DNA of 64,000 nt, taken from Owenia fusiformis (Eukaryota > Annelida > Polychaeta > Sabellida > Oweniidae). The stretch is taken from positions 12,174,196 to 12,238,195 of the forward strand of contig CAIIXF020000004.1 in the NCBI GenBank assembly GCA_903813345.2. Reading direction: 5' to 3'. The notes under the pieces are model-generated. The model saw nothing but the letters and a program-made list of their open reading frames with translations, made no database searches and had not been told where the DNA came from. Of the stretch, positions 1,480 to 48,378 are shown in pieces (positions within the stretch are counted from its first letter, which is position 1; the number at the start of each line of letters is the position of its first letter). The position numbers and the translations under genes were made by a program.

Positions 1480-2633
1480 CAGCAGATCGTTTTAGTTCAT
1501 GTATTTTAATATAATATTCATAGTTACTAATAGTAGGGTAAGTAATCAACACAAGCTTGGCAAGTGAACCGTTTACAGTGTTGCATATACTCATGACTTA
1601 ATGAAACAGCAGAATAGATGTTTAAAATTCACATTCACACTTCAGGAGTTCCATATTTTTGTATTGTATCAGGATTATTGCAAGGATCTAAATATATGAG
1701 AGGCAAACTTTGAAATACAGGTGAGGCAAAACTTTGGTGAGCCAAACAGGATATAAACATTAAATGTTGGCGAGGCAATCACTGAAAATGTAAAGATCCA
1801 ATCAAAAATCAATAAAAAACAAGTTTTTCTATATTTCAGATTGAATTCTGTGCAGCTTTACCATAGATGTCAAAAATGTCTGTTTATGTCATATACGACC
1901 TTGACAATAACTGTTTCAAAATAGGAAAGAGCGATGATGTTGAAGGACGTTTAAGTGAGATCCGTGAGCAACACCCGAGAGCAGTCGAAGTGATGAGACA
2001 AACAGTTAGAACTGAGCATGCCTCCGCTGCCGAATCTGCGGCTCATTCAAGGTCAGGGAAATAAATATTAGGAAGGAAGCTACGTGTTTTAAAATAAATC
2101 CAATGGCCCTACACAAGAAAGGAAATCTTATACTATACAAGTTAAGATCCAGATATTCTGATAAAAATGCTCTCATTTCTTTATTTTTGGAAGTTATTGC
2201 TTGTAATTTGGACAGACAAAAGATAATTTATTTTGGCAAAAGATATAAAAAATATAAATTTTATTCCTTCATAACTCTCCTCACGGGAGAACTTTTTTTT
2301 CTTTGCCATGGTAACGGCACCTGTATAAAGCCAAATTTTTACCATCAGAAATTCAGAGCTCCCTCAAAATATTTAGATTTGAATACTTGAAGGAGGGAAC
2401 ATTTGTATGGGTTTTATAGAACTTGTTCATGTGAAAATACTCTTGACAGAGTTTGTTTACTTGACCGATTACAATAATACAACTAAATCAAAAGTGTTTT
2501 TGATAACTTTGGAAAATAATGTTTCGATGATATTGTTACAGCAGATCGTTTTAGTTCATGTATTTTAATTCAATATTCATATTTACTATTAATAGGGTAA
2601 GTCATCAACACAAGCTTGGCTAGTGAACCGTTT
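1480..2633. repeat. Pair of about 95-bp direct repeats flanking the first exon of the GIY-YIG-like gene
   Basis: Segments 1480-1574 and 2538-2633 are near-identical direct repeats that share 'AGCAGATCGTTTTAGTTCAT' and end with 'AGTGAACCGTTT'. They are offset by 1059 bp and differ by a few substitutions and small indels. Between them lies the first coding exon (1867-2051). They may be remnants of a small mobile element or the product of a local duplication. Confidence 0.7.
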
Positions 2634-4091
2634 TGTGAAGTTTTTAGTTGCTTAGTTAAGAAATTTAAGGCTTTGATTTTACCTTTATATTTCTTTACAT
2701 CTATTTTGTTCCTTGCATAAACCAGGAAGCAGGAGCATTCTACAGAAGTATTTGAGCAGCTTCTTTGTGACTGTTAACTTAACCAGAACAACGGCAACGC
2801 CAAAGCGTAGCGAATCCCATCGAACAGAAATGGCTGGCATTTTTACAAACGAAGCGCAAATATCATAAAACAACACACCAGAAAGGCCACCATTTTCAAA
2901 ATGGTTGCTCACTAGCCAAGTTGTCATCAGAAGAAATAATATGCTTTTAAGTAGCCACCTCTAAAATTTTTGAAAAATCGCACACATGCTTGTAAAATAA
3001 CACACATAAAAATGGTGGCCATTTTTCAAAATGGCCGACTACTCCCTAAAGTTTTATTAGACAATGTGCCCTGCTTAAAGTATTCACATATCAAATATGA
3101 ACAAAATCGCTCCACTACTTTTCGAGTTATAGTAAAATACGTTAAAATGGCGGCCATTTTTCAAAATTGTTTTCAAAATGGCCGCCTTCTACCAAAAGTG
3201 TCATAGGACAGTGTGCCATGCTTATAGTATTCACATACCAAATATGAACAAAATCGCTCCACTACTTTTCGAGTTATAGTAAAATACGTTAAAATGGCGG
3301 CCATTTTGAAAAATGGCCACCTTCTACCAAAAGTGTCTTTAGACAGTGTGCAATGCTTATAGTATCCACATACCAAATATAAACAAAATCGCTCCACTAC
3401 TTTTTGAGTTACAGCAAAAATCGTAAAATAAAGAGTAAAGGCCGCCATTTTTCAAGATGGCTGCCATGTGCTTCTTTAATATCTACATTTGTAGCATTAT
3501 TAACGTCCTTTATAATTTTTTTACATTTAAAACATATTGCTATTACAGTTTACATATTGCACCTAAATTACTGTAAAATCGTCACTAAAATGGCCGCCAT
3601 TTTGAAATGAGCGGCCATTTTGAAAATCGGCTTTCGAGCAGAACTTCTTACCCTATAGGGTATATGTGTACAAAATATGAACAAAATCTGGCCAACCGTA
3701 TTTGAGTTATTGCCCGGACGGACGGACGGACGGACAGACGGACGGACGGACGGACGGACGGACGGACGTACAGACGTACGTACGGACGGACGGACGGACG
3801 GACGGACGGAGGCGTTCCCTATATCCCTCCGAACTTCGTTCGATGGGATAAAAATCAAGTTTGTTTTAATGACTATTTCACTCCAACTTTAAACCTTAAC
3901 ATTTTCTAAGAAAGTCTTTAAAAATCAAAGTTTTTATTTTCAAATTATTTTTCAGGGTCCAGACACGTCTCAATATGGTGCCAATATGTATCGATCCTAA
4001 TGACTCTGATTGGTTTAAACCATCAATTAGAGGAATAACAAAAAGGACAATAGAACAGACAATAAAAGAAGCTATCATACAGTACACATAG
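1867..4091 (+). CDS. Stand-alone GIY-YIG nuclease-like protein (T5orf172/MUG113 style), copy 1, two exons
   Basis: Exon 1 is 1867-2051 and exon 2 is 3956-4091, joined in phase 2, giving 106 residues. The donor (AAG then GTCAGG) is weak; the acceptor TTTTTCAG is good. Seen: 'YVIYDLDNNCFKIGKS' at residues 7-22, which fits the Y...KIG strand pair of T5orf172-type GIY-YIG domains; R28 in the following helix; E56 in 'AAESAAHSR', fitting the metal-binding Glu; and a 'DSDWFK' C-terminal motif at 78-83. Family knowledge: these domains are small nucleases of phages, giant viruses, bacteria and some eukaryotes, usually fused to other domains; here the domain is the whole protein. No signal peptide or membrane segment is visible. 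The intron holds an ATGGCGGCC satellite element. The paralogue at 7960 supports the exon model. Nuclease activity is inferred. A short uncharacterised domain with a KIG motif is the alternative. Confidence 0.72.
2885..3850. repeat. Satellite element with ATGGCGGCC palindromes, CGGA array and terminal hairpin (copy A)
   Basis: From about 2885 to 3625 a unit of roughly 120-130 bp repeats. It contains 'AATATGAACAAAATCGCTCC', a run 'GAGTTATAGTAAAA' and the palindrome 'AAAATGGCGGCCATTTT'. It is followed by a (CGGA)n microsatellite (about 3716-3810) and ends in a hairpin at 3822-3850 (TATCCC, CGAAC, loop TTC, GTTCG, GGGATA). The same order of parts, with a Penelope-like open frame in the middle, is seen at 12240-15513 on the opposite reading sense, so this looks like a short non-autonomous copy lying in the intron of the GIY-YIG-like gene. 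Confidence 0.75.
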
Positions 4092-4431
4092 ATGGCGCTT
4101 TGGTTAGTAAACTTATCAGGTCCTGTGATGAATCATGTAACAAAAAATAATATGATGGTTTATATTATAATTTCAATTAGGGACAATATTCCCCACTCAA
4201 CAGCTAGTAAAATATCATATTTTCTATTAGTGGGTTAAAGCTTATCATTATCAATTATTTCTAAGAAAGGTTTTTGGCTACCTTTGTCAATTGCAGTACT
4301 TTGTCAATATGCAGTAAGTTAAAGTGTGTTGGAACTACGCTAATGTGAAAAAAATTGTATTGATCATTTGTTAAGGATCTTAACTTAGGCATTTTATGAT
4401 TGAAATCATTTTTGACTTATCAGACTAATAT

Positions 4432-4685
4432 AGGAGGATTGGCTCCCAGAGTGCAACATCGATATTTTTGCCATATATGGGCATGTCGTGATTACAAAAT
4501 TTGAATTCAAACAGCCGCCATTTTGTTCGCTTCAGCATTTGGATCATGAATTTTGGTCTTATTTTCAAAAAAATCCCAAAACTCATAAGAAATGATCGAG
4601 AAATTGGTTCAGTTATAATTTCAGAAATTTACGAAATATTGACGAAAATATAGTTGAATTTCGATCCTGGAAGCCAATCCTTCTC
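4432..4685. mobile_element. MITE with AGGAGGATTGGCTCCCAG ends, copy 1
   Basis: About 254 bp bounded by inverted ends: left 'AGGAGGATTGGCTCCCAG', right 'CTGGAAGCCAATCCTTCT'. It is flanked by CAGACTAATAT and CAGACTGATAT, an imperfect target duplication. A younger copy of the family lies at 63440-63744 in the opposite orientation and shares internal words such as 'TTTTGGTCTTATTT' in reverse complement. No coding capacity. Confidence 0.75.
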
Positions 4686-5810
4686 GCAGACTGATATAAG
4701 ATGCTAACATGTGTAGAACATGATGTAAATATCACTAGACAGAGGTCAACATTAGATAAACAGGATCATGGCCTGAGGGACAAAGTTATTTCAAAATAAA
4801 AAAATAGAGGTGGAGGAAATTTGGATGGGGAGTGTAACATGGATGGCAATATCCATATTTCTTTTACGCCATCATATTCTAAATTTCTAATTTTTCTTAT
4901 TTATAAGATTTTCAGTAAGCAAAAGACAAATAAAAAGGGCATTTCAATTTTCATGTTCCATTGCCATCTTAAAAGAAAATAATGTTATCGACTCTTAAAT
5001 TGCATATATAATATATATAGAGAGATATTCAGTCTTGTACAAATGTAAAGTATTTATAGCTTGTATTGTATTTAGAGCTTATGTATAGATAAATAGCAAA
5101 GACAGTGTTCTCCTAGGATTTTATCGGCTGAGCTCAAAATTATATCCATTCCATTTTGAATGTCAAAAATTGGTCAAAATCTCCTAAATTTTTCACAATT
5201 TTCTGAGTTTTCTATTTTCTCAACTTCAGGGTTTCAATTTCAACTAAAAATGGCAATTTCATTTTCTCAAGTATAGCAACCTATTGTCTTGATACTTGGG
5301 GGTTCACTGTACAATAAATATATGCCTTAATGTATACAATAAAGTTCTCTCTATGGGTATACTTGGAACTCAGTCAATATATTGCTAGATGTCCACAATA
5401 TGTTTGGAAGAAGTTAAAAAAAAGGTCAATTTAACTTTGTGGAAAAGCTAATTTAAGGAAATTACTCATAATACTCACAGTTTGAAAGATATCTATGAGG
5501 GAAGGTGACTTATTATCAACAGTTATGTGAGTACAAAGTTGATTCTTTCATAATTTAAAGACTTGATTTTTCACTTTTCACAATTCAAGAGAAAATCAAA
5601 TAAACATTTTAAAAGTGTGTGATTTTGGGGAGAGGGCAGCCTTTATGGTGACCATACTAAAATTAATTTTGTTTTTCTACAACTGCTGATAACTTGACAC
5701 CATCCCCAGGTATTTACTTTTTGGGTGTAGGGGAGAGGGGGGATCACTGTTAAACATACATTGTGATTCAGTATGCCTTTGTACGGAAAACATTACCACA
5801 CTGACAATGC
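4686..5810. other. Intergenic, nothing recognised
   Basis: AT-rich single-copy-looking sequence. No open frame with recognisable similarity, no tandem repeat and no RNA gene was seen. Confidence 0.4.
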
Positions 5811-5995
5811 GGTAAAACCTGTATATTGTGAACACCTATGGAGCCACAAAAAAGTGTTCAATGTGGGTAGGTGTTCACTACAGAGAAGGGATTTTATGCA
5901 GGAGTCAATGTAAAATGTGTCTTGAAGTGGTGTTCATAATACAAAGCACAGGTGTTCACAAAACAGAGGTGTTCACTATGACAGGTTTTACTGTG
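5811..5995. mobile_element. MITE with GTAAAACCTGT ends and GTGTTCA words, copy 1
   Basis: About 185 bp with inverted ends 'GGTAAAACCTGTAT' and 'GACAGGTTTTACTG'. It is full of GTGTTCA or TGTGAACA words, which make subterminal repeats. Other copies are at 8228-8340, 19875-20017 and 20146-20327. It has no coding capacity; the open frame across it is chance. Confidence 0.75.
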
Positions 5996-6010
5996 GTCCC
6001 TTACTGTACA

Positions 6011-7340
6011 GTATGAATGTTAGTGTTAAATTTGGGACAAGTGCCAGACTATTATATCATTTCATAAATCATGACCTATCATTTGAGGTATAGCCAGGCA
6101 TAATGTAGCAATAGGTGAGGCAATCAAGGCAGGTGAGGCAAACGGGGCACCACTATTTTACCATCAAAGTAATATTCAGACCACTTTTTACTGAAACAGT
6201 TTAATGATCTACAAAAGCAGCTATTTATCTTTTATGTTATATTTGCCTCACCTATTTAAATTTGCCTCACCTGTTTTCAGGCTTAGCTATGCCTCTGATC
6301 ATGATTAATAAGCCATGGATAACCAAGAGATATACATAATATGTAGAAAAAACAGGACATAATGTATAATAATATTTTAGAAATAAGAAATGTAATACTA
6401 CACTGTTGTTGTCTACAAGTTTTGAGTTTTTATAAATAATTTGAAAATCATTTATTCTAACTTTCTAAAACACTTTTTCATACAAGGCATTAATGTGACA
6501 AAATATCACAACTTTGATAGTTATTGGAAACTGTTACAGACGCCAACATCCAAACATCGAATGCTGACTGCCCAACGCTATCCACAAAAAGTTGGTGATG
6601 ACATAACAAGTTATCATTTAATGAACAATATAATCTCGTATATTCATGAATGCATTTTCGTAAGTAAAACATGAAAGTTGAGAGGAAATTAACCTCCTCA
6701 ATCCCTGGCTCTACAATTGGTTGAAACTAGAGAATCTTTCATTTTTGCCACCTTTTGACATTTTACTACATATCAATACAACTTGAGATGTTCAACTTAG
6801 TAAAATTGGACGGCAGAGATAATTTCTACTCATTTTAAAACAATTTTTGTGTAAATTGTATGAACATTTTTCAAATAAGAGCAATTTTAGTGAACATATT
6901 TGTGACGAATTTTCTCATCACTCTGGGTTTCAAGGTCATTTCAGAGGTGACGAGAATTCTCGTCACTCCAGGTAGTCAAGAGGTTAAATATATTTTGGGG
7001 CAAACAGTACAGACCTACTAGGGTTCACTTACAGCAACCTTTAACAAGCATTGTCATAATGACATAACCCTATTAAGAATAAGTGGTATCGATTTCTAAG
7101 AACTGAAGGTATGCCAACTAATCAAAACATTGTTCGATTTGGATTTATTAACCAATCAAAACAAAAGCTCTTATCTCAATCGATTAACTAAAGTAAAAAA
7201 TTCAAGTGGTCGCATATCTTAGTTATAACATGATTATGTAGGGGTGCAATTTTTTCAATAAATTGATTGGTTGTATTTTATTTATATCTATCGACATACA
7301 TTATAAAATTAAATATCAGTCATTGTTTAAGATACAATTG
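6011..7340. other. Intergenic, with one orphan candidate exon
   Basis: Mostly featureless AT-rich DNA. Positions 6487-6659 form an open segment between a possible acceptor (CATACAAG) and a perfect donor (GTAAGT at 6660). Its translation ('HNFDSYWKLLQ', 'KHRMLTAQRYPQKVGDD') looks protein-like, but I do not recognise it. Its phase does not join the coding exon at 7960, so if real it is either untranslated there or belongs to another gene. Confidence 0.3.
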
Positions 7341-7959
7341 ACATAAAGAACAGGGAAAGTCGGGACAAGGGAGGACCAAGACTAGGTTCTAAGAAGTACC
7401 ATTACTACATATCTGAAAAGTAAGTATTTAATTTATGACTTACATATAATATTTAAGGTGGGTTGATTTTTGGAATGTTCAAAATGTTATTTTATTTGCA
7501 CTGAAAAACCATTTCGATAAAATATCAAATTGAATTTGCTTTCATCCTAAGTCCTCCAAAATTGATGTAACATTAATTGTAAGCTGAGGATGAAAGCAGT
7601 CCCCCCCCCCTCTGCAGGCATTATTGGTTCCTTTTTGAATTGGTCCTCATTTAGTTCTTGTAATGTATGCAATCCTACACATCAAGCCCTACATTGTTTT
7701 ATTACAATTAGAGACAACATGCAAAATGAATGAAAATTGCTAAAAACAATTTAGGTAGATGAAATAAAATTGATCTATTCTGCTCCTAGGAAATGATGTA
7801 CATATTCCCTCTGATTTTATCTTAACCAAACCCTGAATGAGATATGTATATTTCATGTGATATGGGAAATACATCATAGAAAGCAACCAATCAAATCACT
7901 AGATTTCTACATAGTATGTGATAGTATATACAGTAATATCAATATCTTATAGAGAAACT

Positions 7960-8703
7960 ATGGTGGCATCTATATATGTGTTTTACGATGAAGCCAATGG
8001 GTACTTCAAGATTGGCCAAAGCGTTGATGTAGGACGGAGACTACATGAAGTACGATCGCGGCATCCACATACTGTTGAAGTCATGAGATGCCCGGTGGGA
8101 CCTGGCATGGAGTTAATTGCGGAGAATTCTGCACATTCACAGTATGGAATTTTATCGATATTATAATGTATAGATAAATATCAAATATCATTTTTTGTCA
8201 TTTTTTTAACAAGAATCAAGTTATCACTAGATATAAGGTTTTTATACAGAATTCAAGTAAGGATGCTCAGAGGAAAGGTGTTTATAAGGGACAGGTGTTA
8301 ACTAGAGAAAGGTGTTCATGTCTATAGGTTTTACTGTACATACATATAGTATACTATTCTCCCACACTTTTCCTCAAGGTGCAAAATTCTGATGGAGTTG
8401 GTCAAAATATGCACATTTTAAATGATTTATTTCATTTTTAACTAAGTGTAATAGATAGGTTTTCAGGTGAATGCTAGCCCATTTTCATATTCCTCACTTG
8501 GTTCAATGTGGTGAGAACATTATATATACTATTACTTGTATATTTATAAAATCTCAGACAAATATAATTTTTCCAGAGTGCAGATCCGGCTGGGAATGCA
8601 GAAAGTTCAATACGATCAGAATGATTCTGATTGGTTCAAAAACCCACAGGGCTATTCTGCGGCCCAAGTGGTGGCAGTAGTGACATCAGCCATTGGTCAG
8701 TAG
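7960..8703 (+). CDS. Stand-alone GIY-YIG nuclease-like protein (T5orf172/MUG113 style), copy 2, two exons
   Basis: Exon 1 is 7960-8141 and exon 2 is 8577-8703, joined in phase 2, giving 102 residues. Seen: 'YVFYDEANGYFKIGQS' at 6-21, RR at 26-27, 'AENSAHSQ' with E55, and 'DQNDSDWFK' at 74-82. All align one to one with the copy at 1867, and the intron interrupts the same place after 'AHS'. I chose the ATG at 7960 because it matches the start of copy 1 and sits just behind a possible acceptor (TTATAG at 7951). An earlier in-frame ATG at 7918 is less likely. A possible 5' untranslated exon ends at a GTAAGTAT donor at 7420. The C-terminal tail differs most between the paralogues. A MITE half lies in the intron. 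Function as a nuclease is inferred from the motif set only. Confidence 0.72.
8228..8340. mobile_element. Partial GTAAAACCTGT-type MITE
   Basis: The right end 'TATAGGTTTTACTGTA' and two GTGTTCA-type words identify a truncated or decayed copy of the family seen at 5811. It lies in the intron of the second GIY-YIG-like gene. Confidence 0.55.
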
Positions 8704-10613: not shown

Positions 10614-13600
10614 CTTGTTTCCTCCTACTGGTTGACCTCCTAGTTCCCCTTGGGCTTTTATTTCCTTCTTCTTTGACAAACTGCGAGGGCCTCAGTGGTG
10701 GACATGGTCTAAGACATGACATGCTCCAAGTCTTGTTCAATTTAAGCGACAGTGGACTCATGATTTGGGCCATTTTTGCTGGTGTGAGAACACTGATGCT
10801 CGGATGTGAGCTTGAGATCTGAAATGAAATTATTGAAAAAGTGTAAACATTATGCCATTAACTATCTATACGATGTCCAGCATTGTAATATTTAACTGTT
10901 TGACCAAAATGTAATACTGCAGAAATAGTTTTGAAGAAAGACATTGAAGGTTAAAACTCAATTTCTTGGAAAGATTAGGTCATAAGTTCCAGGAATTGAG
11001 ATGTGTGATTGGACAACGCTGTGTCTATGCTTACTGATATAAATTGGCCATTTTGTTAACCTTAAAATGAAAATACCCAGAATTGATTGAAGGGCTAAGC
11101 TTAATGAGGCCCGATCTGAAATGGATGAATATGTTTTAAGACATTCATTTAATACAGAGGAGGTACATTGTTCCCATCACTTACCTGTATTGTTTGGGGT
11201 TTGCTGGGTATTGGAGGAAGGGTGCTTTGTTGTGTTATTGCATCATACCATCTTTTCTGATCATTCATTGTGTTACAATAAACTGAAATCTTTTCTATCA
11301 TACTGCCTGAAAATATAAATCACAAAGATTGTATTTTTTCAAAGATTTTACAAAATTTTTCCAATTTTTTTTAAAAAATTAACACAGCAATTACAACATT
11401 TTTTTATACAAGTTTGTGGAAACTACACATTTTTTGTATCAAAAACTATTTATCTTTACTGACATCCATCATTTTCAATGTTTTTGTCATATGTGTTTTT
11501 ATCCTGAAATACCCATTCTTTTGGAATATCTCTGGTTTATTTATTTAGATTCCACTCCGTGCAAGCCAATATTTTGATCAAATAAGATATACCTATTCCT
11601 ACAAGTCTATTCAGTAAAAGTACAATTATTTCAGATAAATTAATAATTGCTAAAGAATATATATATAATAGGATTTATTTGTACTGATGCCCTTTTAGGG
11701 CCAAACGTACATCCAACATACAATTTACAAAATTATATATATGTATATAAAAATATATGTCAATAAAATTTTGCCTAAAAAAACCTAGTCATTTATTTCT
11801 AACTGTGACCCCTCTTCCCATATCAAATTTTCCAGTTAATTACCTGTGAGTTCCAGTATATAGGACAGATTCTCTGGGTCTTCGACTCTGGTGACCCGTA
11901 CGCTTGTAACTGGTAGCTTACCCTGTAATAAAAATATATAAATGTACGCCAGGCACTGTGAGCTAACCCTGTAATGTAATTCATACATGTACACAAGAAA
12001 ACTTACATGAATACCAGTAACTGTGAGTTAACCCTGTAATTTAAAAAAATATATGTAAAGAGGGGAATATTGAAGGTTTGCATTCCATGCCTTTTTGGTC
12101 TTTCCCCTTATGACACGAGTACTTGCCTATCTATTTGTATCTACAGTCCTTGAAGTATCGATTGTTGTAGAAACAATATGACCAACTGGAACATTTCTAA
12201 TTAGACCTCATCCAACCCTTTTCAACAATATATCACATATAAAATTTTAAAAAAATGGCACATACATACATGTAAATGCTGGCCATTTTTTAAAATGGCC
12301 GCCTACTACCCAAAATGTCATAAGACAGTATGCAATCCTTACAAATATTCACATATCAAATATGAACAAAATCACTCTATTACTTTTTGAATTATAATAA
12401 AAAATGTAAAATAACACACATAAAAATGATGGCCATTTTTCAAAATGGCCTACTACTCCCCAAAGTTTTATTAGACAATGTGCCATGTTTAAAGTATTCA
12501 CATATCAAATATGAACAAAATCGCTCAAATACTTTTCGAGTTATAGTAAAAAATTTAAAAATGACAGCCATTTTTTAAAGTGGCCACCTACTACGCGAAG
12601 TATCATGAGACAGTGTGCAAGGCTCATAAGTATTCACATATCAAATATGAACACAATCGCTCCACTACTTTTCAAGTTCAAGTAAAAAACTACCCAAAGC
12701 GTCATTAGACAGTGTGCCATGCTTATAGTATTCACATATAAAATATAAACAAAATCACTATACTACTTTTTGAGTTATAGTAAAAATAGTAGAATAACAC
12801 ACGTAAAAATGGTGGCCATTTTTCAAAATGGCCGTCTACTATCCAAAATGTCATTAGACATTGGGCCATGCTTAAAGTATTCACATACCAAATATGAACA
12901 AAATCGCTCCACTACTTTTTGACTTACAGTAAATAATGTTAAATAACACACATAAAAATGGCGGCCATTTTGAAAAATGGCCGCCTACTACCAAAAATGA
13001 TATTTGACATTGCGCCATGCTTAAAGTATTCACATACCAAATATGAACAAAATCGCTCAACTACTTTTCATTTCCTTATTAGTCTTAGAACTCTGACCAT
13101 ATCTTTAATATTTGATTTTTTGGCTTTTTGTATTTTATCTGTATCCATTTATTTTTAGCAATTGTCTTTTTGATATACAGGGTGATCCAGAAGTAACGTC
13201 AAAGATGTTGTAATTTCAAAAGTATTCATCAGATCTTCATGAAATTTGGTATACATGTACCCACAACATTTCTGATAGAAATTTGCCTATTGTCCATAAC
13301 ATCAGCTTCAATTGCTTTGATGGTTTGATCATCGAATGACGACACTGGCCTGCCTCCTCGCTGCTTGTCTACCACTTCATCATATCCACTGGAATACTTG
13401 TTAAACCACCTGTAAATGTTTCTCTCAGCAATGGCAGCTTTACCATATGCCTTCTTTATCTGTCTTATAGTCTCTTTTACACCTTTCCCCAACTTTACAC
13501 AGAACTTAATGTTTGTTCTTTGCTCTATTTTACTCTGACTTGGCGCCATCTTGAATTGGGTGGGTTAGTGTCCTTGGTCATGTTAGTATTTGTCATGGAT

Positions 13601-16600
13601 GATGGAAGCAATTCAAAGAAATTGAAAGCTTTTTATGAATGCCTATTGTGACATCACAACTATTACATATTTGTTACCATGGCAACAAATATAAAAATCA
13701 TAGAAAACAAACAATGAACATTTTCAAATGTTACTGACTTTTTAAATTAGAGAAATTCACAAAAACGTTATGGTTTCTCTTCAATTTGCCCCGGGTTACG
13801 CGATATGGGGTTACTATAGCAACCATAATTTCAACCAATGAAATGATTGAATTCCAATCTTTGAGATGGTAACTCAGAAATGTTGTGGGTACATGTATAC
13901 CAAATTTCATGAAGATCTGATGAATACTTTTGAAATTACAATGTCTTTGACGTTACTTCTGGATCACCCTGTATGCTGACAGTGTTTCTTTCTTATATCC
14001 TTGAGATACTAATTTTTTCCCCAAGTACTTGATTCTTTTGGAAGCAATTTTTTCATCACTGCAGACTCTTGATATTCTTATTATCTGTGACACATAAACT
14101 CCATATGACTGTTTTCTTGAAATGTTTCCCGAAAGGTCTGGATAGGAAACTATATTGAAATCAAAATCCTCTCTCTTATCATATATTTGTGTAGTAATTT
14201 TCTTGTGTTCTATTGTGAGTTTCATGTCGAGAAATGTTGCTTCATCGTTATTTGCATTTTCCTTGTTCAGTCTTAGTTCAGGAGGGTATATATTTTCCCT
14301 TTCAATTTCTAATTTTCCACCATTATTTATACTGCATAAGTCATCTATGAATCGAGCTGTTTTGTTATATTTCATTGCTCCTCTGTAGTCTTCTTTAAAC
14401 ATTTTTTCCATTGCTGTATACTCATATGCATAAAGATATAAATTTGCCATATATGGTGCTGGATCTATTCCCATCGGTATTCCAATTTTTTGTCGCATTA
14501 TTTTGTTTCCAGCTTTAAAGTATGCATTATCTACTATGAAGTCTACTAGTTCAAAACAGTCTTCTTTATTAAAGGTAGTCCTTTTGGTTCCAGTTCCTCC
14601 CCATTTTGCATCTTCACCATTTACACTAATCTTCTGATTTCTTCTACCTTTAAATGCTTTTCCTATGGTCCATTTTAGTTTTTCTTTCAGATCTTGTAGG
14701 TTTATATTTGTATATAGGGTCGAAAAGTCAAATGTCACAATATTCCTTGCTCCTTTTCTCATATTTACTTCTTTGACAAATTCTAGCACATCATTGTTAT
14801 TTTGGCAAATCCACATCCTGTTTGTTCCAGTTAGGTTTTTATTCCTATCAAATATTTTTCATTACATTTTTGCACTAATTTAAGAATTTTCGTTAGTTTT
14901 CTTGCTGCTGTTTTTATTGAACTTTTCTTTGATCCTATGATGTACCTAAATTTGATCGGGTTTTTGTGCATCTTTAACGTAAGGTGTATGTTTGGAAGTA
15001 CGTTTTTTCCATCTTCTGGTGTGATGTTGAATTTATCTTGAATGATCCTCTTCATTTCATCTACAATAGATTTTGCGTCTCGTACTTCAATTTGTTCATA
15101 TGTATCAGTTCGTATTTCTTCTTTAATTTTCTTGATGTAGTATTTTTTGCATATGAATCCAATGTTGTTAGCCGCCTTTGTCTATAGGAACTATAACGTA
15201 CTCTTCTTTTAGTCTGTTTAATTCATGTATAGCTTCTGGATCTCGAAGCACTTGTTTTGGATTTCTTATATGCTTGAATTTTCCCCTTTTGAGTCTATCA
15301 ATTTTCTCTTTCACTTTAGACATTACTTTAATTGTCCATTCATTTAATGCTGATTCTGCTATTTTTTCCTTTTTACTCCATTTCTTTGCACATTCTTTTA
15401 TCCCTTTCTTTATTTCTCGGTAAGTGTTGTCAAAATTTATATTTCTTTTCTCCCTGTAATTAGGACGGACGGAGGCGTTCCCTATATCCCTTCGAACTTC
15501 GTTCGATGGGATAATGAGAGACAAAACCAAGCTATCCAACCTGATTAGGTATCATTGATTTCTTTGCTTCATAAAGCCTCAGTCACCTTTACTCTATGGT
15601 GGTTGTACCAAAGCCATAACTTCACAAAATCGATATAGAAAATGTACATCGCACTACTTATCCCTATATTTTGCTACATATTTCTCTGATTTTGGGAAAC
15701 TTCACCAGCCATGCAGTGGCCATGAGTTGCTGTAATTTAATTCATGTTAAAACTCCTAAAAAGCCCCAAATGATCCATTTTGGGCCATTAAGATCTAATC
15801 AACATCAAACTGCAGCATTGTCTATCTCAGTCAGAGGATTGTTATTCCTATCAACCCCTAGGCTCCAAAGGGTTAAAACAAACCTTACCTCATAAGTAAA
15901 TGTGCTCATATCTGCACTAGTCGATAACATCACAAGGACCCCTTGAAACAGCATAAACAGTCGATCCAGTTTTTCTTTACATGGAGGCTTTTGTATCCTC
16001 ACATGTGACAGCAGTAACACATCTCCAAGTTTTGTAATTTCCTGAAATTGAAAAAAGTAACATTTCCAATTTCTTGAAATTAAAAACAATTTTTACCGAT
16101 TAAGAAAAAACTTTTTATTAAACTAAGTATTGCAGAATCAATTTTTGTCATTACACTAATTTTTCCGAAAGATATATACTTTGATCAATCCAAATGGCAT
16201 CGCTTCTTAGTTGCCACTATTTATTGCCATGAAACATTCGTACATACAAATACCACATAACAATTTTACAGCAAACAAATTAATTTTTAACCAACTTTTT
16301 GGAAAAGTGTATATGTTTAAAAAGAGTTCAATTGAATTTCTAAAAACATGTATTTAAAGTGACATTAAGAAAAATGGATGTTTTGCAAAAAGGTGGTATT
16401 TTGAAAATAATAATTTAATATGCTCTCACCTCCCCCTCCCATCCTCTTATAGAACTAGAAATGATATCAAACTCCAACTCCTTCATCTTCCTAAGTTCAA
16501 CACATCCCACTGTGATGTCTTTATAAACCGCTATAGCTCTTTGTGTGTCCCCTCTGTCAATGTGACTTTCCTGAAAAAATGTGTATTTTAACTAATATTG

Positions 16601-19600
16601 CCTTAATTCAACACATCCCACTGTGATGTCTTTATAAACTGCTATAGCTCTTTGTGTGTCCCCTCTGTCAATGTGACTTTCCTGAAAAAATGTGTATTTT
16701 AACTAATATTGCCTTAATTCAACACATCCTATTGTGATGTCTTTATAAACCGCTATAGCTCTTTGTGTGTCCCCTCTGTCAATGTGACTTTCCTGAAAAA
16801 ATGTGTATTTTAACTAATATTGCCTCAATTCAACACATCCCATCGTGATGTCTTTATAAACTGCTATAGCTCTTTGTGTGTCCCCTCTGTCAATGTGACT
16901 TTCCTGAAAAAATGTGTATTTTAACTAATATTGCCTCAATTCAACACATCCCATCGTGATGTCTTTATAAACTGCTATAGCTCTTTGTGTGTCCCCTCTG
17001 TCAATGTGACTTTCCTGAAATATATTTTATATTTTTACTATTACAAGGGTTGTCCAAAAAGTCTTGAAATTTTTGCCCTCTGTCATCAATTTTTATTCTC
17101 TTGGCCCCATATTTTACATGGATGAGCTTTGAACATTTGTTGTTCACTTTGTAAAGTTTGAAGGAATGACAGTGCATAGTTTTATTTTGATGAGCATTGC
17201 AAGAGTATGAGTTTTGCCCCACATGGGCACTTGTAACTTCCATGCATTCAACCTACCATATTGTTTTAAAAATAATCTACAAAATCTTAAAAACATTAAT
17301 TTTTTATAAATCAAACTTGTTAACATGTTTAAGACCACATACTTCTAGACAAATGAGTACTCACTTCAATATGCCGTTCTAGTTCTTTTAAAAGTTGGGG
17401 GTATTTATCTAATCTGGTGAAAGTCTTTGACAGGTTTGTTGTCAAGGTCATTGATCCAGGAGGTGCTGCCCCCTGGCTTTCAGTGAATGTATTAAGTTCT
17501 TCCCTGAAAAAAAGAAAATCGTGAATTGAAAACCAAATGAAAAAAAACAAAGATAAGAGAGGGAAATATATAGAGATGAAACAAATCTAAGCAAAATGGG
17601 ATGTTATACTACTATTTTCACAGTTTATGTTTAAAAAATGTAGAAAACTATTTTTTCTGTAAAGTTCTGATAATAAAATTGCCTTATAATTTGTTAAATT
17701 ACATTTTGCATTTTTTCAATACAATACAATAAAAATAATTTCTCTTTTTCAAATATGAGAGAATCAATTTTGGATGGCTATTCTAAGGCACAAATCTGAT
17801 ATGACAGACTCTAAATACAACCAAAATTGAAATAGATTTACCTTTTTAAGGTGAGCACGGCTACAGCATGTGGGTGATTGGAACTGTATTGTTCATAGAC
17901 TTCCTTCATTCTGGGTGCTGTGGACATAAACAAACCTCCTACTCTTTGTTGCGGAATGGGCAACCTTAAGATTCAAAAAATAGATTACTTTAATTAAAGT
18001 GGTACTTATAGTGTCTGCCTTTTTTGGAGCAAAGAAAATATATTTCTTGCATGGTTTAGGGGTGATGTAGAATTTTTCAGAAATTTCAGAAAAATCGATG
18101 ATTTCATTTAAATATCTGAGACAACTAGAATGAGATAACATGAGTAGATGTAGGTACTCTTCATCTAATATCTCTCAATCGGCAAAGAATAAAGAAAACA
18201 GGCATGTAGTTAACACTCTACAAAATTGTACAAGTGTACAAAATTGTCAGAAATCAGACGCTTCATTCAAATTGAGTAAAATAACGACAACAAATCAATA
18301 TATATTACTTTGCACATTCCTCTATTGTGTTGAGAAAGTCTTGCTGGAAGTTGATCAGTTCCTCAAGGTTGCCACACAGCTGACTGTATTCTCCTGGACT
18401 GAGGCTGTAAACATATGATTAATACAGGTTCATATGTGGGTCTCATCCCAAAAATTTAAAATTCAATATATTAGGTTCAAATATGAATTCAAAATTAAAT
18501 ATATTAGGTTCAAATATGAATTCAACTTTCAATATAGGTTCAAATGTGAATTCAAAATTAAATATAGGTTCAAATATGAATTCAACATTCAATGTATTGT
18601 AGGTTCAACATTAATTCAACATTCAATCTTTAGGTTCAAATATGAATTCAAAATTCAATATGGGTTCAAATATGAATTCAAAATTAAATATAGGTTCAAA
18701 TATGAATTAAAAATTCAATATAGATTCAAGTATGAATTCAAAATTCAATATAGGTTCAAATATGAATTCAAAATTCAATATATTAGGTTCAAATATGAAT
18801 TCAACTTTCAATATAGGTTCAAATATGAATTCAAAATTAAATATAGGTTCAAATATGAATTCAACATTCAATGTATTGTAGGTTCAACATTAATTCAACA
18901 TTCAATCTTAAGGTTCAAATATGAATTCAAAATTCAATTTAGGTTCAAATATAAAATCAACTTTCAATATAGGTTCAAATATGAATTCAAAATTCAATAT
19001 AGGTTCACATATGAAATCAACAGGGGTGAAACGGGTTGAAAATTTTCTAGGATGGGTTCCATTCGGGTTTGGGAATCAAATCAAATATGACTGAATACAT
19101 GTTCAACGCAATTCAATTCAATGATAATGTGATCGATCTCTTTTTCCGCTTGATTTTTTTTTTCTCCAAAGGCGTGTGTGTGTTGTGTTAGACCCCTCCA
19201 TGTGAGAAGGGGTGGGGATTTTGACAAAAAATTGGGCAACCTTATGAGTCAATCCCTCCCACCCTGGCAGAAATAATAGCTGGTAAAATTTCAAAAATCC
19301 CACCACCTGAAACAATACTGCATGTGAAATTCTCTATTTTCCTTACGGGGGGGGGGGGGGTCTCACAGAATCATTTGAAAGGTACGTAAATGTTGATTTA
19401 ATGGGATTTATTGATTTCTTTAGTTAATCAGACATGATTTGTTATAATCAAGCTTTACTGTCAGTTTAATCATATGACGTAATTACAATGTTATTACATA
19501 GTAATTGTAATAATAAACCCTTCCTTTATTTTATTTAATTTAGAAATATACATAACATGTACATTTGCTAGTCACACTCACTGATTAGTATTGCAATAAT

Positions 19601-30568: not shown

Positions 30569-31587
30569 TTAAATGCCCAGTTCAAATTTAAGTTGCATTT
30601 CCTTAGCTCCTTGGCCAAGTTTCTGAGGTTGTTGCAGCTTGTAGAAGTTGCCAATAGCAACCGCGTCATCTGATAGCGTCATCCAATGACAATGCTTCAT
30701 TCTGTTGAGGCTGTATCTATCTGTATCTTTCAATTGAAGTGTTCCTTTAATACACTCCTTTAGACTTGGGTGTAATGGTAAAATTTTGTCATCCGGGAAC
30801 TGAACTCCGTGATCCATACGGTGAAGGGTGATTTCATTGTCGTCTGCTTGATCTGTCACCTTATAAGGTAATCTCCCAGTTGTCATGTAACATAGAGTGA
30901 CACCTATTGCCCAAATATCTGTTAATTTCGGGTTATAACATCCCACATCGTAGGACTCCATTGCGTTTTCGAAATTTGATCCGATGTAGACTAATTCCGG
31001 GGCACTATATGACGACAGCGGAAGTTTTTCGCAGAGCAATGCGTCCAAATCGCGGAACTTTAGCGCCATTGTGAATCCGCTAAGTTTGATATTATTGCGA
31101 CTATCAAGCAGAAAGCTGCTGCATTTGAGATCACGATGTGCTATATCTTGATGGTGCATATAATTCACTGCTTCCAAAATCTGTCGAAAGTACCTCCGAG
31201 CGACCACCTCCGTCAGGAAATCCGATTTATGATTCAGGTTCGCGTTAATTACGGTCTCCAAAGTCCCGTTATTACAGAATTCCATGATCATTAGTACTCT
31301 CCCGCGTATGCAAAGGTCATTGTAAAGTTCAACTATATTAGGATGTTTCAATTCTTTCAAGAACTTCACCTCATCTGGAATGTCAACTGTAAACATATTT
31401 GAAATGCCACCTCCCTTTCTGGCCTTCCGTTTGAGGTTTTTGATTAGGAATTTGATTGCGACGTTGTTCTGCCGGTATATGGAATACGCAAGAAGGACGC
31501 TACAGCCGCGGCTTTTATGGAGGCGCATAGTGCGGTTGTAACCAAACGTGTCCAATTCATCAAGAACGCCATCGTAATAAGGATCCC
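30569..31587 (-). CDS. TSSK-like Ser/Thr protein kinase, predicted pseudokinase, main exon
   Basis: One 1019-nt exon, acceptor TATTTTCAG at 31588, stop at 30569; 339 residues of a kinase fold. The first coding exon and start codon were not identified: the exon begins two bases into a codon. Counting from the exon start: the VAIK lysine at 46, a helix-C-like 'EVKFLKELKHPNIVELY', 'HRDLKCSSFLL' at about 151, 'SAPELV' near 195, 'DIWAIGVTLCYMTTGRLPY' near 224. 'HRDLKC' and the overall pattern point to the testis-specific serine kinase group. The glycine loop lacks GxGxxG, the metal-binding Asn of HRDLKxxN is Ser, and DFG is replaced by SGF, so both Mg ligands are missing while K and HRD remain. 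Catalysis is therefore doubtful, though a scaffold role is possible. A divergent active kinase cannot be excluded without relatives. Confidence 0.85.
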
Positions 31588-33280
31588 CTGAAAATATAAA
31601 AACAGGCTGTTGTAAAATCAAAATGTAATTGTATAATGAATGATATTGTATATTTGGAGTCATATAGGCCTAATTAAAACAAGGAACATCTACGTAAAGT
31701 TCACTACTACACCAGTCTGGAAGGAATGACTAGTGTTTTCATTTTTTCGATCCATTTGTTCATACATTGCACCAAGTTCAACACTAAGTTTCTTTAGTTT
31801 ACTTATAAACAATAAGGGCCTGTTTAGGCCACTCCCAGAAGGATAGTTCAGATTTCGTTGCACACCGGTGATAACTGTCACCTTTATCTAATTAAGGACC
31901 TAACTGGCCGTTATGAAGCAAAAATGAGCAGGATAAAGTGCTGTCATAGGCCCACTATATAACGAATGAATATGAGGGAGACAATACGCATCAAAGTAAC
32001 CGAAATGATTGCTCACTAGGGATAATGTTGCATTTTGGCTGAGTGCTTTTACCTATCAATTTGACTCCGTAGTTTCCTCTTTTGAGACCCTTGATTGGCA
32101 ATTTTGCAAAGAAACTAAGCTTATGATTAATCAACATTAAAATATTGAAAAGCCATTGTTATACCATTTCAAATAGTGTTTGAGGAACGTACATGGTTAT
32201 GGTCTTGCCTCAAAACTGTATCCCTGTGTAGTTCACATTTCCAAACAAATGTGTTGGCTTGGGCCGAATTTGAAGAACTACACAGGTCAGGGGGTACACA
32301 GTCTTTAGGCAAGTCTAACATGATTATTACACGTAAATATAGGGAGGTTAAACTACACGTTTTAAGAGAATGTGTGACATTATGACCATCAGGCATTACT
32401 GTCCCCGTAACAGTTGGTTTTTCAAGGGACCTTATGAGCTACGACTTTTGTCTTATTGCTTTCATGCCTTTAGACTCAAATGGACGAGTTCATACCAAAA
32501 GGGAGAACTAAAACTCCCTGGATGGCCATCATTCAAGTGTACACGTTTACGTTTAAGTTATCTTAAAAACGGGTAGCTCAACCTCCTACCTATAATTGAC
32601 AATGGCTGATTTGACAACGTCTGTTTGTAAATATCAAGTCGCGTCCCGGGAATATGAAGTAGAGGCAGAGAGAAGGGGCGATTTATGATCGCACAAAACG
32701 AATCGCTTGGTGATTGAGTTGAGTCGAGATAGATTAGATATATTACCTTACTGTTATTACGTAATTCTGAAATCAGAAACTAGTGATGGGTTCTGGCTGT
32801 TGCTTAGTAATAAATACACTTAATACAGGCTTTTGAAATGTCCGTTCACTTCAAGCAATTTCTAATCACGCTGAACAGTGTTCTCCGTTGCCTTGGTGAT
32901 AAATAATACCGTGACAAAATTCTTGTTTTTCTCTTCCGATAGTTGGGAGGAGATACGGATGGAGGATATTTGGAGGCAGAAATTGTATGGCTTAAAAGCA
33001 TCCGCATCTCATCATTTTATTGCCATCTTTAATGGTATGTTATAAGGTATAATATTCGAAAAGTGTTACAAATTGGCTTTGTTGAGGCACATCGGCAATG
33101 CAGACTTTGAGGAGTTGTCCTATCATATTTGTATCAAATTAATTTAGAGCTCGCTGCAAATATAGCGATTTGAGATTTACGACGTATGATTCTTGAAAAT
33201 AAGTGCTTCTTTACGGCATTGGTCTAATTGCATTGATGGGGTTGCGGCATCCATACACGCCTCGTATTTTTATGTTCTGT
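31588..33280. other. Upstream region of the kinase gene, no exon firmly identified
   Basis: Open frames at 31690-31881 (-) and 32169-32396 (both strands) show no recognisable similarity. A possible minus-strand donor (TTGATAG then GTAAAAGC) lies near 32050. The missing kinase first exon probably lies in or beyond this stretch. Confidence 0.35.
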
Positions 33281-33389: not shown

Positions 33390-34275
33390 TATTTCATGGT
33401 TCGAACTATTCACTAAGCGCATATATTGCATGGTCTGAAGGGAACCTAAATTACTAAGCGGACATATTTCATGGTATGAAGGGGACCTATACCCGGGGAC
33501 CTAAATTACTAGGCGCACATATTTCATGGCTTGAAGGGGACCTATACCCGGGGACCTAAATTACTAAGCGCACATATTTCATGGCTTGAAGGGGACCTAT
33601 ACCCGGGGACTTTAATTACTAAGCGCACATGTCATGGTTTGAAGGGGACCTTTATTACTAAGCGCACATATTTAATAGTTTGAAGGGGACCTATACCCGG
33701 GGACCTTAATTACTAAGCACACATATTTCATGGTTTGAAGAGGACCTATATTACTAAGCGCATATATTTCATAGTCCGAAGGGAACCTTTATTACTAAGC
33801 GCACATATTTCATGGTTTGAAGGGGACCTATACCCGGGGACCTTAATTACTAAGCACACATATTTCATGGTTTGAAGAGGACCTATATTACTAAGCGCAT
33901 ATATTTCATAGTCCGAAGGGAACCTTTATTACTAAGCGCACATATTTCATGGTTTTAAGGGGACTTATACCCGGGGACTTTAATTACTAAGCGCACATAT
34001 TTCATGGTTTGAAGGGGACCTATACCCGGGGACCTTAATTACTAAGCACACATATTTCATGGATTAAAGAGGACCTATATTACTAAGCGCATATATTTCA
34101 TGGTCTGAAGGGAACCTAAATTACTAAGCGCACATATTTCATGGTATGAAGGGGACCTATACCCGGGGACCTTAATTACTAAGCGCACATATTTAATGGT
34201 TTGAAGGGGACCTATACCCGGGGACCTTAATTACTAAGCGCACATATTTCATGGTTTGAAGGGGACCTATATTAC
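33390..34275. repeat. 55-bp VNTR with a higher-order 137-bp unit
   Basis: The basic unit (55 bp, spacing measured between CCCGGGGAC words at 33491, 33546 and 33601) contains 'ACTAAGCGCACATATTTCAT', GGTTTGAAGGGGACC and TATACCCGGGGACC. Some units lack the CCCGGG part. A composite of two to three units repeats at 137 bp (ATAGTCCGAA at 33771 and 33908). About 16 units in all. Confidence 0.9.
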
Positions 34276-36175
34276 TTTGGTTTTTCTCACGATATTCATA
34301 TTCCATGTGCATGTATGTCCCTCATATCACATACTTGACAGCCCCCCCCCCTTCTAGTCTAAGAGTATAAAGACATGAGCTTCAAAATGCCTCACTGCGT
34401 TTCCACATTGACTTATTTGAAGGTATTAGATGGAATATAATCTTTCTTTGCGGATTATTGGATTATGGACATAATAGGTTTTAGACTCCCTCGCTATATC
34501 ATTATTGTTCATAACATAGAATCCTCGGAAAAACTACAAGGTGGTCAAATTTTTGATTGGAAAATACAACTGAAAAGAGCAAAATGAGCAAGGAATAAAG
34601 TAAACAGACATGTAATCAACATCCTAAATTGTAAAAAAATGCCAAAAACCAGGCAGTTTATTCAAATTTTTGAGAGAAAACACGTATTTTGCACGATTGG
34701 AGAAATTGTTTTTGGCATGGATGTTCGTGCGATTTATCACGATAGCAGAACGCTCGAGATCGGCTGTTAACTTTTCATTTCCATATGTTAAACCAATTTG
34801 ACATGGATCGTAAATCAATAGTTAACAATATAAATAGTAGGAAGTTCAAGTTGAAAAAATGAGCATGCGCTGATTTATAGTAAGGTCCTAATTCATGATA
34901 GCCTTATGATGAACATTTTGAAATTGTACACCCCTCACAAAGTTTTGAAATATAGCAGGAAGTTCAATTTGAAAAATAGAAATGCCAACGATCATGAAGT
35001 TCGTCAGAGTTTTTTTTAGAAAAAACACGGTATTTGCACGATTGAAGAAATTGTTTTTTTCTTGGATTCATAATGCTCATAAATAGAGAGTTCAATTTGA
35101 AGAAAACATAATGTACATAAGGAGTTAGAGCTTCCTTTTAACTGTTAAAGGTTGTACAAAATACATTTTAGAATCCAGTAACTAACTCTTGAAATAACTT
35201 CAGATAAAGATGATTTAAAATGTGCTGATGATTTAGAATGTGCATTTGATGATTTTTGAAAAATCGCCATTCGTAAACAGGCTTTAATACGTCAAATAAA
35301 GGAGTTGATGCTGCTAAACGTTTGAATGGGAGTGTACTTTGATGTAGAAGAGGAGAATTCTGTTACGACGCTATTTGTTGACGCCCAATTAGTGCCAAAT
35401 TAGCACTTTTTCAACACAGACAATTGGCACCAAATGGAAGGTGTAAAAGAGATTGTTTATTTCGTATTGACTATTGTAGCCCCTGAATGGTTGCTAATAA
35501 GTTACGCTTGTAGACGTACGAGTAAGCCAACACATGGTGATTAATATCGGACTTGAAATTCAAATATCCCGCCTTGTAGATGATCCAGCATGTCCAAAAT
35601 CTATATCAATATTGACACTATTTTTGGCTTTATCTTGCATCTGTAAAGGTTTCTCGGATAGTTTTCTCATCCTTCATTTAAAGGGCTACATTTATTTCTC
35701 AATCCATAGAATGGAGTAAAATACACTTGGATCAAGCATGGGCTCTACCACCAGGATGTATTTTTGCTTAGTTGTTTTGTGTCGTCCACCTGCCCGATTT
35801 CACGCCCATCAATACAATACGACGACAACATTATTGATGAACATAGCACTTTTTGAAATAAAAACAAACTATCCACCGTATAGTAGTTCTGTTATTCTTG
35901 AATCACTAACAGTTGGAAATTGTGGCGAAATTGCAAATTACACTTATAAGGTAATAATTATTATAAGGTTGGACGTCCATTTCCAGAAGGTTTAATTTTC
36001 CCAACCAGAATTTCAACACACAGTGGCCTAAACAAACAATTTTCATCTCAGTAAAAGCTCAATAATATTGGATAAGGAACAGTGAGGGCAGGCAATATAC
36101 GTAATGCGATGAGAAAAATCTTTACACGTCACGTACGCATTTGGTGTAACAAATCACATGGCGGGGTGACTGGTA
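34276..36175. other. Intergenic, nothing recognised
   Basis: AT-rich. The word 'AGGAAGTTCAA' with a following TTGAAAAA-type run recurs near 34839, 34969 and 35088, and 'GCACGATTGGAGAAATTGTT' at 34693 recurs with one change at 35036. This suggests an old approximately 350-bp tandem duplication. No coding similarity. Confidence 0.4.
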
Positions 36176-38740: not shown

Positions 38741-38935
38741 AGTAAGTAATGTCATCGACTATCAAGTTTGCAAATTCCATTAGGTGAGGAGATTGCAAGA
38801 AGCACCAAACCGGCCAAATATTAATTTTCAATATTGTGTCCGTAATTTGATTCTTTTACTTTATTGCACAGAAAGTAAAGGTCAATTGTATAGACGTGAC
38901 TTGAGCTTCATCTAACTGATTTTGGGTCGCAATCG

Positions 38936-41717: not shown

Positions 41718-41999
41718 TCATTCCTTATCATAATTAGCATCATAAACTAAGGATGATAACTGTAATTCAGCCACTTTATTGACGTAATGGTCTACTATCG
41801 AAATGGGAACGACAAATTTAAGAGATATTCCCGGAGTCATGCATCTCCTCTTTACATCAGTTTGCGCAGTGCGCATACTCGGAACTGCGCTAAACACTCG
41901 GGAGCGCAGATTTTTAACTTTGTCCCGTGCTAAATCAAATTGCTTTGCATTAATTGTAGTTCCTAAAACGCAATTTTGTTGACTGAAATTTGAAGCCAA
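41718..41999 (-). CDS. Unrecognised 93-codon open frame, doubtful
   Basis: Minus-strand frame from an ATG at 41999 to a stop at 41718 encoding 'MASNFSQQNCVLG' ... 'VDHYVNKVAELQLSSLVYDA'. The composition is protein-like, but I recognise no domain, signal peptide or membrane segment. Its first 60 bases are the start of the 1609-bp repeat unit, and in the other three repeat copies this beginning is joined to different sequence. It could be a small exon or chance. Confidence 0.2.
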   Translation of the reverse strand: MASNFSQQNCVLGTTINAKQFDLARDKVKNLRSRVFSAVPSMRTAQTDVKRRCMTPGISLKFVVPISIVDHYVNKVAELQLSSLVYDANYDKE

Positions 42000-47900: not shown

Positions 47901-48378
47901 AAAAATTCCTGACTCAAAATGACTCCTTGGACCCGCGCATAGAACCTTGGAAGGTATGGAATACAACTAGTTGTTAGTAGTTTCAAGTCTCCAAACTCCC
48001 ATGCAGTGTCTCGGAATATGTTGAAGACTAGCACTGCACGGGAGTATCGTCTCATCATTTATCACGGCCAATATAGTCAATACATGTTCTTAGTCATCAG
48101 AGAGAATTCATTTTGAACTAATTATCCCATTTTAATTAATTACCTCATTTGGACATGTCCTACAATCTTAATAAATGACCATTTGTCTTAACAAAGGAAG
48201 CCGACTGGTAGTTGAAGTTATTAATCGATGGAGTATTTCTCGAAATATTCATAAAACAATTCCTAAGTCCAATAATATTTTCGAATCATGATACTTACTT
48301 ACTTACATGATATCCATGTTACAACAACGGAGAAAATTCCCCAGAATTCATAGCGGAACCTATCACATGGTAAAGTTG
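41940..48378. repeat. Exactly four tandem copies of a 1609-bp unit
   Basis: Copies start at 41940, 43549, 45158 and 46767 and end at 48375, with the 3-bp word TTG at every junction including the final outer edge (48376-48378). All stretches I compared are identical between copies, including four open frames per unit with identical translations. The unit contains no recognised gene. It has a patch rich in GGCC words (around 42855-43075 in copy 1) and a 51-bp miniature hairpin (43168-43218). Identity this high means a very recent amplification, or an assembly artefact. Confidence 0.95.
43168..43218. mobile_element. 51-bp hairpin related to the 62907 MITE, present once per 1609-bp unit
   Basis: ACTCCCATGCAGTGTCTCGG and GCACTGCACGGGAGT form inverted ends that match the ends of the 424-bp element at 62907-63330 (ACTCCCGTGCAGTG, and GCAGTGTCTCGG in reverse complement). 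The same hairpin occurs at +1609, +3218 and +4827. Confidence 0.6.

What the first reader, a model, noticed from the sequence alone, without database searches (positions are those of the whole stretch)
1867..8703. Two tandem, intron-bearing genes for stand-alone T5orf172-style GIY-YIG proteins in an animal genome
Both genes encode only about 105 residues: a Y...FKIG strand pair, a conserved Arg, an AE...AHS motif (candidate metal Glu) and a DSDWFK C-terminal motif. The intron is at the same codon in both, so the pair arose by duplication of an already intron-bearing gene. Established knowledge: T5orf172/MUG113 GIY-YIG domains are known mostly from phages, large DNA viruses, bacteria and fungi, usually as parts of larger proteins. 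A minimal animal family of one domain could be an acquired gene put to host use (repair, defence or RNA processing). Conservation of the putative active-site residues in both copies, while the C-terminal tails diverge, suggests selection.
Basis: partly seen in the sequence, partly recalled or inferred. Interest (0 to 1): 0.78.

Follow-up and report, generated by a model that had tools for sequence, protein, structure and literature searches.

The report
Tandem small animal nuclease-like genes
A protostome animal carries a small cluster of short, intron-containing genes that look like stripped-down DNA-cutting enzymes of a kind best known from phages and fungi; the genes are real and conserved, but what they do is untested.

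Summary
Both pass Pfam's cut-off for T5orf172 (39 and 22.8 bits against 20). A third copy lies 4.3 kb upstream of the window (100 aa, 35.7 bits), with the same intron. Searches of the 498-Mb genome found no fourth, though they can miss diverged copies. The animal is a protostome (mir-2 cluster).

The conserved Glu matches the catalytic Glu180 of phage nuclease Odn in most, not all, alignments tried (13 of 20). Exon 1 alone is predicted as strand-strand-helix-strand-helix, consistent with GIY-YIG but tied with unrelated folds. The paralogues share 44-47% of residues with B, nothing outside the exons, and dN well below a saturated dS. No relative with the nuclease core came from phage, plasmid, viral or prokaryote collections. 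Best reading: old, host-kept minimal nucleases; activity and role are inferred. A sponge T5orf172 gene is already in print.

The parts
1867..2051 (+). Gene B coding exon 1 (61 codons + 2 bases): first strand with Tyr7, FKIG, Arg28, Glu56 of AESAAH
   Evidence: PF10544 six-frame genome match 27.6 bits; exon-1 model pLDDT 88.4
2052..3955 (+). Gene B phase-2 intron, 1904 nt (GT..AG), holding a ~147-bp-unit repeat array and a CGGA microsatellite
3956..4091 (+). Gene B coding exon 2 with stop: VQTRLNM..NDSDWFK and C-terminal tail
7960..8141 (+). Gene C coding exon 1 (60 codons + 2 bases)
8142..8576 (+). Gene C phase-2 intron, 435 nt (GT..AG), same codon position as in B and A
8577..8703 (+). Gene C coding exon 2 with stop: VQIRLGM..NDSDWFK and tail
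1840..1866 (+). Candidate 5'-UTR start of gene B's first coding exon, after an acceptor-like site (ctatatttcag); an in-frame TAG sits directly before the ATG
   Evidence: read by eye; no transcript evidence
7953..7959 (+). Candidate acceptor-to-ATG stretch of gene C (after cttatag); copy A has a similar site 14 nt before its ATG
   Evidence: read by eye; no transcript evidence

Best explanation
The region holds two of three tandem, same-strand paralogues of a minimal, single-domain T5orf172-type (GIY-YIG superfamily) protein in a protostome animal. They arose by old local duplication of a gene that already had its phase-2 intron, and are kept by selection on the protein. The most likely biochemistry is metal-dependent cutting or nicking of DNA: the invariant Arg and Glu (Arg28 and Glu56 of gene B), the first-strand Tyr and the K-I-G strand would form the active site, as in phage Odn. 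With no DNA-binding module on the same chain, targeting would come from DNA structure or from a partner protein, as Slx1 works with Slx4. Shown: gene structure, family membership, third copy, residue conservation, dN below dS. Inferred: expression, nuclease activity, partner-dependence, cellular role. Between repair and defence against foreign DNA I lean slightly to defence, because small tandem paralogues with diverging tails fit it, but this is weak.
Confidence: 0.58

Rival explanations
1. A catalytically idle T5orf172 domain kept as a nucleic-acid- or protein-binding module.
For: The canonical second Tyr is Lys; the His after Glu is lost in copy A; the Glu's match to Odn E180 depends on the alignment; some database names read 'T5 Orf172 DNA-binding domain-containing protein'.
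Against: Arg and Glu are invariant in 3 of 3 copies, and Odn, which also has Lys in place of the second Tyr, cuts DNA and needs that Glu.
Confidence: 0.22
2. A selfish stand-alone homing endonuclease, or cargo of a virus-like element, still mobile or recently so.
For: T5orf172 genes are described as homing endonucleases in phages (PMC10448857, passages) and GIY-YIG genes including T5orf172 are mostly stand-alone in polinton-like viruses and virophages (PMC12220804, passages).
Against: All three copies sit in one 13.6-kb cluster on one strand; no dispersed copy found; shared spliceosomal intron; none of the 61 neighbouring frames scanned (of 99 listed) matched a viral or transposon family at E<=0.001, though a Mos1-type HTH and reverse-transcriptase remnants lie about 4.5 kb or more beyond gene C; no DNA-binding module on the proteins.
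Confidence: 0.06
3. Domesticated endonuclease domain of a Penelope-like retroelement of the same genome.
For: The genome has many PF01541 matches (68 at E<=1), and a reverse-transcriptase remnant lies at 13956-15551 (the Penelope label is recall).
Against: PF10544 matches in the genome are only exons of B and A (2 of 2 candidates), so the PF01541-type elements were not picked up by it; B scores 39 bits to PF10544 but 16.9, below cut-off, to PF01541.
Confidence: 0.04
4. On origin, and compatible with the best explanation: a broadly conserved but unstudied animal or opisthokont gene family, vertically inherited, so that nothing was acquired by this lineage.
For: T5orf172 is listed as a mesocyte marker gene in the sponge Spongilla, origin 'unknown' (PMC10176882, passages); MUG113/YPL034W exist in yeasts. 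No close prokaryotic or viral relative was found here.
Against: No eukaryote collection could be searched, so presence in other animals, beyond that table entry, is untested; the searches for prokaryotic and viral relatives were insensitive.
Confidence: 0.5

Closest known systems
Odn (gp88) of Vibrio phage ICP1, a T5orf172 origin-directed nuclease
   Same: PF10544 domain; Lys in K-[IV]-G, Arg, and a Glu that most alignments match to Glu56 of B; an NDSDW stretch near the C-terminal end, matched in the profile alignment but not in MAFFT
   Different: 226 aa by the start that makes the Glu residue 180, with an N-terminal RepA_N-like part; intronless phage gene; targets replication origins
MUG113 / YPL034W (Yfs1) of fission and budding yeast
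   Same: Eukaryotic nuclear genes of the related MUG113 family; PF13455 and PF10544 are 'highly related' profiles (PMC10448857, passages)
   Different: The nuclease-like domain is central in the protein (PMC12719033, passages); sequences not compared here
T5orf172 mesocyte marker gene of the sponge Spongilla lacustris
   Same: An animal gene annotated with the same domain
   Different: Only a table entry seen (PMC10176882, passages); sequence, length and copy number not seen
Stand-alone GIY-YIG/T5orf172 genes of polinton-like viruses and virophages
   Same: Stand-alone architecture
   Different: Virus-borne genes in protists (PMC12220804, passages); sequences not compared here
Slx1 (GIY-YIG subunit of Slx1-Slx4)
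   Different: PF01541-type family (recall); the genome has a separate Slx1-like exon on C12 (name from recall of the motif)

Membership tests
T5orf172 domain family (PF10544) | HMM score above the curated cut-off | tested here: met
   39, 22.8 and 35.7 bits against 20, in 3 of 3 copies
T5orf172 domain family (PF10544) | Tyr strand, K-[IV]-G strand, conserved Arg, conserved Glu | tested here: met
   Invariant in 3 of 3 animal copies; Glu matched to the phage Glu in 3 of 3 by a phage-only profile and in 13 of 20 MAFFT set-ups. That these define the family is partly recall, partly PMC8263062
T5orf172 domain family (PF10544) | GIY-YIG fold | tested here: inconclusive
T5orf172 domain family (PF10544) | Glu-dependent nuclease activity (I saw it shown for Odn) | not testable with these tools
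   needs protein and assay
MUG113 (PF13455) | HMM score above the curated cut-off | tested here: inconclusive
   Above for B (30.7) and A (26.6), below for C (17) against 22.3
GIY-YIG catalytic domain, canonical (PF01541) | HMM score above the curated cut-off | tested here: not met
   B 16.9 against 22.6; C not listed at E<=10; A not listed at E<=0.01
Phage-type T5orf172 homing endonuclease | Attached DNA-binding module (CapR/DUF723/DUF4397 or similar) | tested here: not met
   The domain spans most of the 100-106 aa; the only other Pfam families over cut-off are the related MUG113
Phage-type T5orf172 homing endonuclease | Mobility: dispersed copies or insertion polymorphism | tested here: inconclusive
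   One cluster only found in the assembly; polymorphism not testable here
Penelope-like element endonuclease | PF01541-type endonuclease fused to reverse transcriptase | tested here: not met
   Two-exon stand-alone genes, PF01541 below cut-off

The most novel reading that the evidence does not exclude
A protostome lineage maintains a locally duplicated family of minimal, partner-guided T5orf172 nucleases that act as host effectors against foreign or damaged DNA, the tails having diverged to suit different partners or targets.
Probability: 0.25. Interest if true: 0.68.

Novelty: new member of a known kind. Interest (0 to 1): 0.42.

Why it matters
In the papers I found, T5orf172 is studied mainly in phages and bacteria. 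A single-domain animal version of about 100 residues would be an easy protein to purify and would show whether animals use this phage-type chemistry, and for what. It would also give the sponge report a bilaterian counterpart.

Tried and rejected
Close relatives. The search for related loci with the three-protein alignment: viral contigs 52 pattern stretches, genome contigs 155, none confirmed. With single proteins: B, viral, 24 stretches, 2 confirmed; A, viral, 13, none; B, genomes, 452, none; C, viral, 13, none. The 2 confirmed (L041, L042) are 77- and 83-aa frames that share only the DPNDSDWF stretch and what follows it, and show no GIY-YIG core by eye; I treat them as chance. These scans need short peptide matches, so absence is weak. 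tblastn of B alone in phages and plasmids: no match up to E 1. NCBIfam: none; PADLOC: one weak match (PDC-S57, E 0.005 and 0.008) for 2 of 3, not used. PHROGs for B and C: best phrog_8130, E 3.1e-6 and 6.6e-4, unknown function. PDB by sequence: nothing that I judge relevant.

More paralogues. A degenerate pattern for N-x-[ST/C]-D-W-F-K hit 16 places (control, pattern read backwards: 0). I read all 16; only the 3 of the cluster have exon-2 context, the other 13 are short or repeated frames. PF13455 gave 4 places: B, A, an Slx1-like exon on C12 (22.4 bits, over cut-off) and one on C2 (16.9 bits, E 4.2) inside a tandemly repeated stretch. The PF10544 genome search found B and A but missed C, so a copy as diverged as C could escape it.

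Organism. COX1 was searched; no match. The 498 Mb and at least 12 large contigs (C1-C12, lengths seen for 10) resemble the annelid Owenia fusiformis (505.8 Mb, 12 chromosome-scale scaffolds; PMC9977687, passages), a guess only.

Literature searches: T5orf172 (22 papers), GIY-YIG + bivalve (8), MUG113 (8), T5 Orf172 (2), GIY-YIG + metazoa + horizontal gene transfer (51, 20 listed), Owenia (8, 5 listed), GIY-YIG + annelid (7), GIY-YIG + innate immunity + invertebrate (4), PF10544 (6), 'Meiotically up-regulated gene 113' (1). In those listings and the passages I read of 12 papers, the only animal T5orf172 gene I met is the sponge one. [quoted passage not shown] I read no whole paper.

Full report
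What is there. The window begins at position 12,174,196 of contig C4 of a 498-Mb, 525-contig assembly. On the plus strand, gene B has exons 1867-2051 and 3956-4091 and gene C exons 7960-8141 and 8577-8703; the joined frames give 106 and 102 aa without stops, and both introns are GT..AG and split a codon after its second base, just after AHS. Searching the whole genome with the B and C proteins turned up a third copy, A, 4.3 kb upstream of the window edge (C4:12169267-12169436 and 12169739-12169871, 100 aa), again with a GT..AG phase-2 intron at the same place. The cluster spans 13.6 kb on one strand.

How many copies. The three proteins, the PF10544 and PF13455 models and a degenerate DNA pattern for the exon-2 motif were run over the genome. 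The only places with T5orf172 exon context are those of A, B and C. The tool calls its counts lower bounds, and PF10544 itself missed C, so a diverged fourth copy is not excluded. As a check that such domains can be found, PF01541 gave 68 places at E<=1, among them an exon on C12 that reads like Slx1 (the name is recall).

What family. All three pass the PF10544 cut-off of 20 bits: 39, 22.8 and 35.7. That is within the range of the nine places over cut-off (of ten listed) in phages T5 and ICP1, 20.3-49 bits. PF13455 is passed by two of three; PF01541 by B not, and it is not listed for C at E<=10 or for A at E<=0.01. A and C are 44% and 47% identical to B.

Active site. In the ICP1 frame at 47.9 kb, the start that gives a 226-aa protein makes the Glu of DTEQRIH residue 180, the residue mutated in Odn/gp88 (PMC8263062, passages); that this frame is gp88 rests on this numbering. 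Is it the Glu of AESAAH (B), AENSAH (C) and AESAAQ (A)? A profile of the ten phage domains aligns the two in 3 of 3 animal proteins. MAFFT agrees in 13 of 20 set-ups: 12 of 12 with 3, 7 or all 10 phage domains of ICP1 or ICP1 plus T5, but 0 of 4 with Odn alone and 1 of 4 with two T5 domains plus Odn, where it is off by 3-6 columns. A profile of the three animal proteins aligned to Odn puts the animal Glu at a gap. I take the match as likely, not proven. Odn also has Lys where classical GIY-YIG enzymes have the second Tyr. The His after the Glu is Gln in A and is missing in several phage domains too.

Selection and age. Between the three coding sequences dN is 0.44-0.55 and ML dS 2.5-5.0; ratios are about 0.10-0.22 by ML, 0.27 by NG86 for A-B, and 0.42 and 0.36 by LWL85 for the two pairs where it ran; the other estimates failed. 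Four-fold sites match at 9 of 18, 9 of 22 and 3 of 18. Introns and flanks 1 kb either side share no plus-strand similarity at E<=0.01, save the acceptor end of the A and C introns. The duplications are therefore old, and the proteins were kept while the DNA round them drifted. No within-species or sister-species data were available.

Organism. A cluster of mir-2 hairpins on C3 (3 over the gathering score, 9 matches at E<=1 in all) marks a protostome (the lineage restriction is recall). The assembly resembles Owenia fusiformis in size and number of large contigs, unproven.

Origin and mobility. No pairwise relative with the nuclease core came from phages, plasmids, viral contigs or the prokaryote genome collection, with the caveat that the last two scans need short peptide matches. 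Of 99 open frames listed from 10 kb upstream to 20 kb into the window, 61 were scanned in one set; three families matched one member each, DUF468 and two RhoGEF-type models. Nine further window frames gave a Mos1-type HTH at 13232-13564, a reverse transcriptase below cut-off at 13956-14858, a kinase and an LRR protein. One cluster, one strand and a shared spliceosomal intron speak for a resident gene. Whether it was once acquired cannot be told without eukaryote data.

What it does. I commit to a minimal, metal-dependent DNA nuclease guided by DNA shape or a partner, at 0.58 (lowered from 0.60 after the alignment check; the idle-domain rival rose from 0.20 to 0.22). The chemistry rests on homology to Odn; the guidance rests on the absence of a second domain; a role in defence or repair is a guess. 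In yeast the related YPL034W shows genetic interactions like those of the resolvase gene YEN1 (PMC12719033, passages), which would favour repair; bacterial YeeC homologues lie in defence islands but had no antiphage effect in B. subtilis (PMC9973331, passages); tandem paralogues with diverging tails would favour defence.

Novelty. The domain is known, animal presence is in print at least once (sponge; PMC10176882), stand-alone forms are known in virus-like elements (PMC12220804), and scattered T5orf172 proteins in large DNA viruses (PMC3493329, one passage). What is new, as far as my searches go, is a three-gene, intron-bearing, single-domain cluster in a protostome with the predicted active-site residues kept. 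I file it as a new member of a known kind, of moderate interest.

Noticed in passing
L012:5072-5676 (G000:C4:12169267-12169871), outside the window: Third paralogue (copy A), with the shortest intron of the three (302 nt) and the His of AHS replaced by Gln.
   Followed up: yes
41940-48378: Tandem array of four copies of a 1609-bp unit; from 42101 on, successive 1609-bp blocks are 100%, 100% and 93% identical, the last block running past the array's end.
   Followed up: partly
38934-40416: 113-bp satellite, 13 copies, 96% match; also 41/55-bp compound arrays at 33412-34276 and a 111-bp array at 16496-17020.
   Followed up: no
2991-3461 and 12264-13069: The ~147-bp repeat array in the intron of gene B is 78-80% identical to an array at 12.3-13.1 kb; a further 52-bp piece of the intron (3800-3851) is 98% identical to 15463-15514 beside the reverse-transcriptase remnant.
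   Followed up: partly
1478-1574 and 2537-2633: 97-bp direct repeat, 93% identical, on either side of exon 1 of gene B.
   Followed up: no
13956-15551 (-): Broken reverse-transcriptase-like frames with a FSTLYTNI motif, like Penelope-type elements by recall; RVT_1 22.6 bits, below cut-off, in the first frame only.
   Followed up: partly
G000, e.g. C7:12801150-12802365, C10:35569474-35570982, C8:505481-506442: Eleven divergent pairs (minus then plus) of PF01541 matches, 0.4-2.4 kb apart, in the list; some too close for a reverse transcriptase between them, so perhaps elements with an N-terminal GIY-YIG.
   Followed up: no
30572-31669 (-) and 55480-56925 (-): Single-frame protein kinase (PF00069, 135 bits) and a leucine-rich-repeat protein (LRR_8, 94.6 bits).
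   Followed up: no
L014, window coordinates about -27056 to -25099: Open frames that read by eye like a RING/B-box/NHL (TRIM-type) protein; not scanned.
   Followed up: no
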